Shown in pieces: positions 62,252 through 64,000 of a stretch of DNA of 64,000 bases. How positions within the stretch are numbered: position 1 is the stretch's first letter; every line of letters begins with the position of its first letter. A program made the position numbers and the translations under genes. The stretch is from Yoonia ponticola (GTDB taxonomy: Bacteria > Pseudomonadota > Alphaproteobacteria > Rhodobacterales > Rhodobacteraceae). The stretch lies in the NCBI RefSeq assembly GCF_014199395.1, contig NZ_JACIJM010000004.1, forward strand, positions 248,001 through 312,000. The letters run 5' to 3'. The notes under the pieces are model-generated. The model saw nothing but the letters and a program-made list of their open reading frames with translations, did no database searches and was not told where the DNA came from.

Positions 62252-62785
62252 CTACCTCACGATTGTGCCGGTACGGCGGATTTTACGTTGCAGTTGCAGG
62301 ATGCCGTAGAGCAGCGCTTCGGCTGTTGGTGGGCAGCCCGGTACGTAGATGTCGACTGGCACGATCCGGTCACAGCCGCGTACAACAGAATAGCTGTAGT
62401 GGTAGTAGCCGCCGCCGTTGGCACATGATCCCATCGAGATCACGTAACGCGGTTCCGGCATCTGGTCATAAACCTTGCGCAGCGCGGGTGCCATTTTGTT
62501 GGTCAGTGTTCCGGCCACAATCATCAGGTCAGACTGACGTGGAGACGCGCGTGGCGCGGTTCCGAACCGTTCAAGGTCATAGCGCGGCATCGAGGTATGC
62601 ATCATCTCGACGGCGCAACAGGCCAGACCAAACGTCATCCAGTGCAGCGATCCAGTCCGCGCCCAGTTGACCATGTCTGCGGTGGACGTGACCAAAAAGC
62701 CCTTGTCCTGCAACTCTTGGTTCAACACTTGGGTTGCATGTTCTTTATCGGCGCCAGCGTCATTCAATCCTGTAGCGATACCCAT
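62252..62785 (-). CDS. nuoB: NADH-quinone oxidoreductase subunit B
   Basis: This 177-residue PSST-type subunit binds the N2 4Fe-4S cluster that reduces quinone. Ligands are Cys56, Cys57 (LACCAVEM), Cys121 (MGSCANGGG) and Cys151 (PGCPP). The ATG at 62783-62785 ([14 protein letters not shown]) is preferred: AGAGGC lies 7-9 nt upstream and the start agrees with other alphaproteobacterial NuoB. The longer frame to 62875 overlaps the candidate promoter. No nuoA precedes it. Confidence 0.97.
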
Positions 62786-62846
62786 AACGATGCCTCTTGT
62801 TTGGTCGATCACGCGCCAGAACGGGTCTGACATTGCTTCAGGTTTG

Positions 62847-62875
62847 GAAGTATGCGGCACGCCCGGAAAGGTCAA
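62847..62875 (-). promoter_or_regulatory. Candidate promoter of the nuoB-J block
   Basis: On the minus strand, TTGACC (plus 62870-62875) and TACTTC (plus 62847-62852) are 17 bp apart. The predicted leader to the nuoB ATG is about 55 nt. The -10 is weak, but the placement directly ahead of nuoB supports nuoB as first gene of the unit. Confidence 0.4.
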
Positions 62876-62979
62876 GACGACAGTGGACCCTGTTCATCCC
62901 CACATTTGTAGTATCAGATTAGCGATATGTTCAGGTTATATTACGATTCTCCCTGTACATGCGGTGTTTAGTTTATGAG

Positions 62980-62999
62980 TTCAGGATGTTTGTCCTGAA
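62980..62999. promoter_or_regulatory. Inverted repeat upstream of the GGDEF gene
   Basis: TTCAGGA (62980-62986) and TCCTGAA (62993-62999) are perfect inverted arms around TGTTTG. The element abuts the SD of the GGDEF gene, and TTCAGG recurs in the nuoB-GGDEF intergenic region. It may be an operator or a leader hairpin. Confidence 0.4.
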
Positions 63000-63020
63000 A
63001 AGAGAGAGAGGGACCGCGTT

Positions 63021-64000
63021 ATGAACGTGTCTCAACGTATTTTTTGGACCACCTTTGGAACGGCGCTGGGTGTGGTGATTGTTTTCACCCTTCTGATTGT
63101 GTGGATTTCCTATCAAGTCAACGCATTGACGGCGACGCAAACCAATACGCGGACCCAAAACGCGATCAATCTCATGGCCCGCAACAATGGCATCATGACC
63201 AAAGATTACGCCCAGCGTGACGTGACCATTCATTGGATCACGCAAGCCCACGAGGCGATGCATCACGAGGACATCGGCACGGGCGTCACGGACAGCGATT
63301 CTTTTGATCTGATGTATCTGCTGACCCATACGGGTGAACCTGAATTTGTTTATGTTTCTGGCGGTGACGGGTCCGATTTGTCCAACTTCAAGCCCGAAAT
63401 TGCGGACGCGCTTGTGCCGCATATTATGAACCGCCCGCTTGAGCCGCGCAGCGTGGTGACGGGGGCGGTGCTGGTTGACGGGCAGTTGGCGCTGGTGTCT
63501 GCGGCCCGCATTCAGCCTTTCGATATCACGGGCTTTGATACAGATACGTTCTCACTGTTGATCGGCGGGATTTGGTTGGACCCACAGGGTCTGGCCGAGG
63601 AATTGCTGCTGGAAGATATGTGGATCGTCACCGACGTCGCGAACCTGCCGCGCACCGATCAATCCCTGCCCCTGCTTGGTCCTAATGGCGCGCCCGTCGC
63701 GTATTTTGTCTGGACGATGGAGCGACCCGGCTTTGCCTTGTCGTTGCAAATCGCCCCCGTGATTGCGTTTCTGGCCGTGCTGTTAATCGGCGGCAGCTGG
63801 ATGATCGGGCGCGTCTCGACCCGTCAAACCGAATCGTTTCTGCGGGAAAAGTCGTTTGCCCGCTCTGATTCCCTGACAGGCCTGTTGAACCGTGCAGGCA
63901 TCGCTGACGTGGTGTCCAGCGAAGAAATCCAAACGCTGATGGAGCAGGAAAAAATCGCAGTGATCTTTGCCGATCTCAACGGTCTCAAGGTCATCAACGA
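63021..64000 (+). CDS. Sensory diguanylate cyclase (CHASE4-like + GGDEF), 3' truncated
   Basis: The frame from ATG 63021 is open to the window end (326 codons). An N-terminal TM (about 10-30, TFGTALGVVIVFTLLIVWIS) is followed by a periplasmic sensor of about 210 residues resembling CHASE4 (NLMARNNGIMTKDYAQRDVT). A second TM lies near 242-262. The start of a GGDEF domain follows (SLTGLLNRAGI and IFADLNGLKVIN). A GAGAGAGGG SD lies 8 nt before the ATG. The GGDEF active site and any EAL domain are beyond the edge, so cyclase versus phosphodiesterase activity cannot be judged. Confidence 0.88.
   Translation, partial: MNVSQRIFWTTFGTALGVVIVFTLLIVWISYQVNALTATQTNTRTQNAINLMARNNGIMTKDYAQRDVTIHWITQAHEAMHHEDIGTGVTDSDSFDLMYLLTHTGEPEFVYVSGGDGSDLSNFKPEIADALVPHIMNRPLEPRSVVTGAVLVDGQLALVSAARIQPFDITGFDTDTFSLLIGGIWLDPQGLAEELLLEDMWIVTDVANLPRTDQSLPLLGPNGAPVAYFVWTMERPGFALSLQIAPVIAFLAVLLIGGSWMIGRVSTRQTESFLREKSFARSDSLTGLLNRAGIADVVSSEEIQTLMEQEKIAVIFADLNGLKVIN

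What the first reader, a model, noticed from the sequence alone, without database searches (positions are those of the whole stretch)
62252..63021. nuoA is missing from the head of the complex I locus
The 12 other nuo subunit genes B-N are present in order, but upstream of nuoB there are only 235 bp before a divergent sensory GGDEF gene; nuoA needs about 360 bp. A candidate promoter sits directly ahead of nuoB. No ORF in the window shows NuoA features (ECGF and LFDLE-type segments). nuoA must lie elsewhere or have been lost or replaced, after a rearrangement that brought in the GGDEF gene.
Basis: partly seen in the sequence, partly recalled or inferred. Interest (0 to 1): 0.7.

Follow-up and report, generated by a model that had tools for sequence, protein, structure and literature searches.

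The report
nuoA split off by antisense GGDEF gene
The complex I gene nuoA is not missing: it lies just past the end of the window, separated from the other complex I genes by a signalling gene on the opposite strand, and the separated genes appear to have a start signal of their own.

Summary
nuoA is present. The genome has one PF00507 hit, on the nuoB strand, 1.6 kb upstream of nuoB and 411 bp past the window's right edge. What is real is an interrupted operon: a complete 451-aa CHASE4-GGDEF gene (63021-64376, +) lies antisense between nuoA and nuoB. It is not an assembly error: G193, a second species whose GGDEF protein is 96% identical, has the same layout. In 28 of 54 measurable genomes of the genus nuoA and nuoB overlap; the other 26 have a GGDEF gene, other genes or a 0.2-0.3-kb spacer. 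A TTGAC-N18-TA promoter pattern lies ahead of nuoB in 29 of 29 split junctions (27 in the genus, 2 outside) and in 0 of 31 contiguous ones. nuoB's embedded ribosome-binding site in the nuoA tail is gone from 29 of 29 splits and kept in 31 of 31 contiguous. A hairpin terminator follows nuoA here. nuoA and nuoB-N are probably two transcription units. GGDEF alleles sit in six lineages. 'Lost or replaced' is refuted; 'rearrangement' and 'promoter ahead of nuoB' are supported.

The parts
62252..62785 (-). nuoB, 177 aa from ATG 62785; first gene of the nuoB-N unit
   Evidence: Pfam PF01058 E 2.5e-29; start placed by alignment of relatives and by its position behind the promoter pattern
62847..62875 (-). 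nuoB promoter-like sequence: -35 TTGACC (62875-62870), 17-bp spacer, -10 TACTTC (62852-62847)
   Evidence: TTGAC-N18-TA upstream of nuoB in 29 of 29 split junctions, 0 of 31 contiguous; 104 such sites in the whole genome. Activity not measured.
63021..64000 (+). In-window part of the CHASE4-GGDEF gene, antisense to nuo, between nuoB and nuoA. The gene is 451 aa and ends at 64376 in continued window numbering (C4:312376). Beyond the window, same numbering: hairpin terminator 64344-64374 (-), nuoA 64412-64777 (-, C4:312412-312777), nuoA promoter-like sequence 64835-64863 (-).
   Evidence: Pfam GGDEF E 5.1e-35, CHASE4 E 6.3e-6, just over its cut-off; GGDEF and RxxD residues invariant in 11 aligned junction proteins; nuoA; hairpin; nuoA promoter

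Best explanation
The usual nuoA-nuoB junction, where the two genes overlap by 10 nt and nuoB's ribosome-binding site is embedded in the end of nuoA, has been opened here and now holds an antisense CHASE4-GGDEF gene. nuoA is transcribed from its own promoter and ends at a hairpin terminator before running into the antisense gene. nuoB-nuoN start from a separate sigma70-type promoter just ahead of nuoB. Complex I is therefore complete but made from two transcription units. Shown: gene positions, the shared layout in relatives, the conserved promoter pattern, the hairpin, the loss of the embedded site, purifying selection on the GGDEF gene. Inferred: that promoter and terminator act as named, that the GGDEF protein makes c-di-GMP, and that split alleles were exchanged between species by recombination in the flanking nuo genes or lost repeatedly.
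For: Single NuoA hit 1.6 kb from nuoB. Same layout in 10 measurable genomes of the genus, this one included, plus G178, where the GGDEF gene is cut by contig ends with nuoA on one piece and nuoB on the other: 11 of 56. The glycine codon of the nuoA tail that would form nuoB's ribosome-binding site is GGA or GGG in 31 of 31 contiguous junctions and GGC or GGT in 29 of 29 split ones, GGC in 10 of 10 other-genus splits; the nuoA stop is TGA in 29 of 29 contiguous genomes of the genus and TAA 12, TGA 11, TAG 6 in the splits. nuoB promoter pattern in 29 of 29 splits (28, G178), 9 of 10 other-genus splits, 0 of 31 contiguous; 0.01-0.3 expected per group. Hairpin. GGDEF dN 0.0167, dS 0.149 between G000 and G193.
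Against: No transcript data. The generic sigma70 scan found no excess in the region and did not list the nuoB or nuoA site (1 found, 1.3 expected); the promoters rest on conservation. A terminator-like hairpin after nuoA was seen in only 6 of 28 split junctions scanned, about 1.2 expected, so termination after nuoA is not general. Two of the 31 contiguous controls (G027, G061) had only 69-79 nt of upstream sequence. One other-genus split (G116) lacks the pattern.
Confidence: 0.88

Rival explanations
1. The patchy GGDEF alleles are vertical: one old insertion before the genus diverged, followed by many losses in which contiguous alleles were put back by recombination with uninterrupted relatives.
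For: Junction GGDEF proteins of the genus and G145 form one clade against the six other homologues sampled (SH-aLRT 96.6, UFBoot 90; 83.3/71 with G129). Their identity falls with genome divergence even across the six lineages: Spearman 0.48, reached by 0.029 of label shuffles; 0.67 and 0.0075 without G158. nuoB promoters of the GGDEF and bare-spacer strains look homologous.
Against: Six lineages on the Der+nuoBCD tree with contiguous strains nested between, and contiguous is the common state in the family (107 of 135 within 30 bp). Against Der alone the cross-lineage correlation is weaker (0.39, 0.06 of shuffles). G158 does not fit (33% to G151 at 88% nuo identity). No GGDEF remnant was found in the spacers.
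Confidence: 0.5
2. The GGDEF allele spread between species by recombination between the conserved flanking nuoA and nuoB.
For: G178 is nested in a contiguous clade (supports 0.98-1.0), yet the C-terminal piece of its GGDEF protein groups with G000/G193 (100/100), its nuoB promoter closely resembles that of G000 and its first 60 nt of nuoB are 55% like its sisters but 73% like the G000 group, while the next 60 nt are 90% like the sisters.
Against: GGDEF identities across lineages are low (27-56%), so any transfer is old; no breakpoint test was run.
Confidence: 0.4
3. The site is simply tolerant, and unrelated genes landed there independently.
For: Other inserts at the same junction: TetR plus GFA (G189 by Pfam, G199 alike by eye), RTX-repeat protein (G155), cation efflux (G050), reverse-transcriptase-like (G011), frames without Pfam match in G154, G176, G116 and G079. 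The G154/G155/G189/G199 group has a different promoter (TTGACG) and leader.
Against: For the GGDEF class the protein is one clade, always antisense, and in the genus always here (11 of 11 long homologues at E 1e-20 or better).
Confidence: 0.6
4. Assembly artefact joins an unrelated piece between nuoA and nuoB.
For: None beyond the draft state of the genome (30 contigs).
Against: Same order in G193 at the same spacing, and in eight further genomes with both genes on one contig at 1608-1708 bp; the junction lies inside a 412-kb contig.
Confidence: 0.01

Closest known systems
Bacterial nuo operon with NuoA (PF00507) at its head
   Same: NuoA intact and upstream of nuoB on the same strand; nuoB-N in canonical order (by eye)
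   Different: A 1.6-kb stretch with an antisense gene separates nuoA from nuoB, and nuoB has its own promoter-like sequence
Extra reading frames inside nuo/nqo operons of Rhodobacter and Paracoccus (recalled; one search listed one paper using the phrase, not read)
   Same: Non-subunit genes in a complex I locus; here also DUF2158 between nuoB and nuoC, GFA and sulfotransferase frames between nuoC and nuoD
   Different: Those three lie on the nuo strand; the GGDEF gene is antisense and breaks the operon
Operon splitting with gain of a promoter (general process, recalled, 8 of 731 papers listed, abstracts' beginnings only)
   Same: The downstream part has its own promoter-like sequence once separated
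   Different: Seen at one junction in several lineages of one genus and family, with contiguous and split alleles interleaved on the tree

Membership tests
NuoA (Oxidored_q4, PF00507) | Profile match over curated cut-off | tested here: met
   133-134 bits against 23.3
Canonical contiguous nuoA-nuoB arrangement | nuoA directly beside nuoB | tested here: not met
   Same strand and the nearest nuo gene, but 1.6 kb and one antisense gene away; position does not decide membership of the NuoA family
Diguanylate cyclase (GGDEF, PF00990) | GGDEF active-site motif | tested here: met
   GGDEF invariant at 359-363 in 11 aligned junction proteins
Diguanylate cyclase (GGDEF, PF00990) | Inhibitory RxxD site five residues before GGDEF (recalled; not needed for activity) | tested here: met
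   R350 and D353 invariant
Diguanylate cyclase (GGDEF, PF00990) | Makes c-di-GMP | not testable with these tools
   No assay
CHASE4 sensor domain (PF05228) | Profile match over curated cut-off | tested here: met
   26.8 bits against 26.2, marginal
Sigma70-type promoter of nuoB | -35 and -10 elements at 17-bp spacing, conserved | tested here: met
   TTGACC-N17-TACTTC; pattern in 29 of 29 split junctions, 0 of 31 contiguous; the -10 is a weak match and the generic scan did not list it
Sigma70-type promoter of nuoB | Transcription start about 7 nt downstream | not testable with these tools
   Needs 5'-end mapping
Intrinsic terminator of nuoA | GC-rich hairpin followed by T-run on the nuoA strand | tested here: met
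   13 pairs, 8 GC, tail TTTGTTTCTA

The most novel reading that the evidence does not exclude
The nuoA-nuoB junction is a regulatory exchange site: a fast-evolving membrane diguanylate cyclase lineage is tied to complex I, shares a divergent control region with nuoB, and couples c-di-GMP signalling to the respiratory state, with split and contiguous alleles traded between species.
Probability: 0.1. Interest if true: 0.55.

Novelty: new variant of a known kind. Interest (0 to 1): 0.3.

Why it matters
It corrects an annotation risk: a missing subunit inferred from a window edge. It also gives a compact natural experiment in operon splitting. Contiguous and split alleles coexist in one genus, the release from overlap can be read in the codons at the end of nuoA, and a promoter pattern stands ahead of nuoB in every split junction examined in the genus and in most of those outside it. 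It lets one ask how a multi-subunit membrane complex tolerates separate transcription of its first subunit.

Tried and rejected
Loss or replacement of nuoA: rejected. Misassembly: rejected. Remnants of the GGDEF gene in the spacers and other-insert junctions: none found (best tblastn E 0.13). The Rubellimicrobium hit (L143) is a GGDEF-EAL gene with no nuo gene recognised by eye in its 8.3-kb stretch. An IQ-TREE run on nuoBCD did not finish. Paper searches showed nothing on this arrangement in the titles and abstract beginnings listed; passages were read in PMC10715153; a find in PMC8879329 gave no hits; no other paper was opened. The library lacks most subscription journals.

Full report
Coordinates above 64000 continue the window numbering past its right edge (window base 1 = C4:248001).

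Check of the observation. Between the nuoB start (ATG at 62785) and the divergent GGDEF start (63021) there are 235 bp and no nuoA. A PF00507 search of the whole genome gives exactly one hit, on the nuoB strand, at C4:312418-312708, while the window is C4:248001-312000. The window ends inside the GGDEF gene, and the 3' end of nuoA lies 411 bp further on. In the direction of nuo transcription the order is nuoA (64777-64412), GGDEF gene antisense (63021-64376), nuoB (62785-62252), nuoC and onwards. GGDEF and nuoA converge with 35 bp between their stop codons.

The parts. nuoA matches PF00507 at E 4.4e-39. Its open frame reaches GTG 64837, but the promoter pattern overlaps that codon and relatives place the start at GTG 64777, giving 121 aa. 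The antisense gene encodes 451 aa with a GGDEF domain (E 5.1e-35) and a marginal CHASE4 match (26.8 bits, cut-off 26.2). The GGDEF motif and the RxxD site are invariant in 11 aligned junction proteins. Between this genome and G193 its dN is 0.0167 and dS 0.149, ratio about 0.11, close to that of nuoB (about 0.020/0.19; that stretch runs some codons past the nuoB ends), so it is under purifying selection.

How common the split is. In one genome per genus of the family, 140 of 149 have NuoA and 139 of 149 have NuoB over the thresholds used; of genomes at least 90% complete and at most 5% contaminated, 129 of 132 each. Of the 140 with NuoA, 135 had both genes on one contig and strand: 107 are within 30 bp, 15 at 31-150, 2 at 151-400 and 11 above 1 kb, this genome included. 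These gaps are between profile-hit ends, not between codons. In the genus 56 of 56 genomes have NuoA; 54 could be measured: 28 overlapping, 11 with 202-312 bp, 3 with 684-850 bp, 11 with 1590-1708 bp and one with 5073 bp. Two could not: G170 (short contig, contiguous by sequence) and G178 (nuoA and nuoB on different contigs). Long homologues of the GGDEF protein occur in 11 of 56 genomes, all beside nuoA on the opposite strand (G178 in two pieces); the other hits to E 1e-20 cover the GGDEF domain and little more. G189 has the same gap size but holds a TetR regulator and a GFA-like gene. Outside the genus, 4 of the other 148 genomes had a hit at E 1e-30 or better: G145 (GGDEF) and G129 (GGDEF-EAL) antisense at the same place, G006 and G130 on other contigs than their nuoA.

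Marks of the split. In contiguous strains of the genus the end of nuoA reads GGA or GGG, GC..., then GAATGGGAGTGATG, so that ATGGGAGTGA belongs to both genes and the purine-rich stretch before it can serve nuoB. The glycine codon there is GGA or GGG in 31 of 31 contiguous junctions (2 of them outside the genus), GGC or GGT in 29 of 29 split ones and GGC in 10 of 10 splits of other genera. The stop is TGA in 29 of 29 contiguous genomes of the genus and TAA 12, TGA 11, TAG 6 in the splits. NuoB begins MGVM, as the overlap dictates, in the contiguous strains of the genus and in some split ones (G151, G156, G158, G173, G190, G154, G155, G189, G199), and mostly MGIATG in the others. The first sixty bases of nuoB are poorly matched to near relatives of another junction class: G168 41% and G178 55% to contiguous relatives, G198 42% to G155, which holds a different insert. 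The other pairs tested do not all show this; G156 is 87% like its contiguous sisters there.

A promoter ahead of nuoB. Upstream of nuoB 25 of the 29 split strains were aligned and share a block beginning TTGACC or TTGACG with TA 18 bases after TTGAC. I then counted TTGAC-N18-TA in the 170 nt upstream of nuoB. The pattern was chosen after seeing those 25, so their count is not independent. Of the 14 splits outside the alignment, 13 have it: G171, G145, G129, G178 and 9 of 10 other-genus splits. In all: 28 of 29 splits in the script (the 29th, G178, had only 49 nt there and shows the pattern), 9 of 10 other-genus splits, 0 of 31 contiguous, with 0.2, 0.01 and 0.29 expected from mononucleotide shuffles. 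The same pattern precedes nuoA in 45 of 45 genomes with about 200 nt available. This genome has 104 sites in 3.73 Mb, against 504 for the pattern read backwards; in the window there are 5, with 2.9 expected. A generic sigma70 scan found no excess and did not list either site.

A terminator after nuoA. A 13-pair hairpin (64344-64374) with TTTGTTTCT behind it lies 37-68 nt past the nuoA stop, inside the last codons of the antisense gene, and G193 keeps it. By the same rule hairpins were found in G158, G159, G153 and G145 too: 6 of 28 split junctions scanned (G178 was not), with about 1.2 expected from shuffles (sum).

History. On a Der+nuoBCD tree of 54 genomes, split against contiguous needs 9 changes (300 shuffles: mean 18.2, minimum 12) and GGDEF against not 6 (mean 10.3, minimum 8); on Der alone (55 genomes) 13 and 7, equal to the shuffle minima. 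The six GGDEF lineages on the joint tree are G000/G193, G178, G156, G173/G151/G158, G168 and G198/G196/G191. The junction proteins of the genus and G145 form a clade against six other homologues. Their identity tracks genome identity, G158 being the exception. Old presence with repeated replacement by contiguous alleles, and old spread by recombination in the flanks, both fit; a simple deletion would not easily restore the exact 10-nt overlap. This last step is inference.

Verdict. Nothing indicates that complex I lacks a subunit in this organism. The finding is explained by the window edge, and behind it is an operon split by an antisense diguanylate-cyclase-type gene, with nuoB-N probably on a promoter of their own.

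Noticed in passing
60136-61460, 62064-62240: Sulfotransferase and GFA-family frames lie between nuoC and nuoD, and a DUF2158 frame between nuoB and nuoC, on the nuo strand.
   Followed up: partly
L003:4043-5092: A Hint_2-domain protein lies just upstream of nuoA on the same strand, beyond the window's right edge.
   Followed up: no
L050:1267-2697: The junction GGDEF protein of G158 is only 33% identical to that of its near relative G151 although nuoBCD are 88% identical: replacement or acceleration.
   Followed up: partly
L077:1441-2916: In G011 the nuoA-nuoB junction holds a reverse-transcriptase-like gene (Pfam RVT_1).
   Followed up: no
G000 whole genome: TTGAC-N18-TA is about five times rarer than the pattern read backwards (104 against 504), as if avoided outside promoters.
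   Followed up: no
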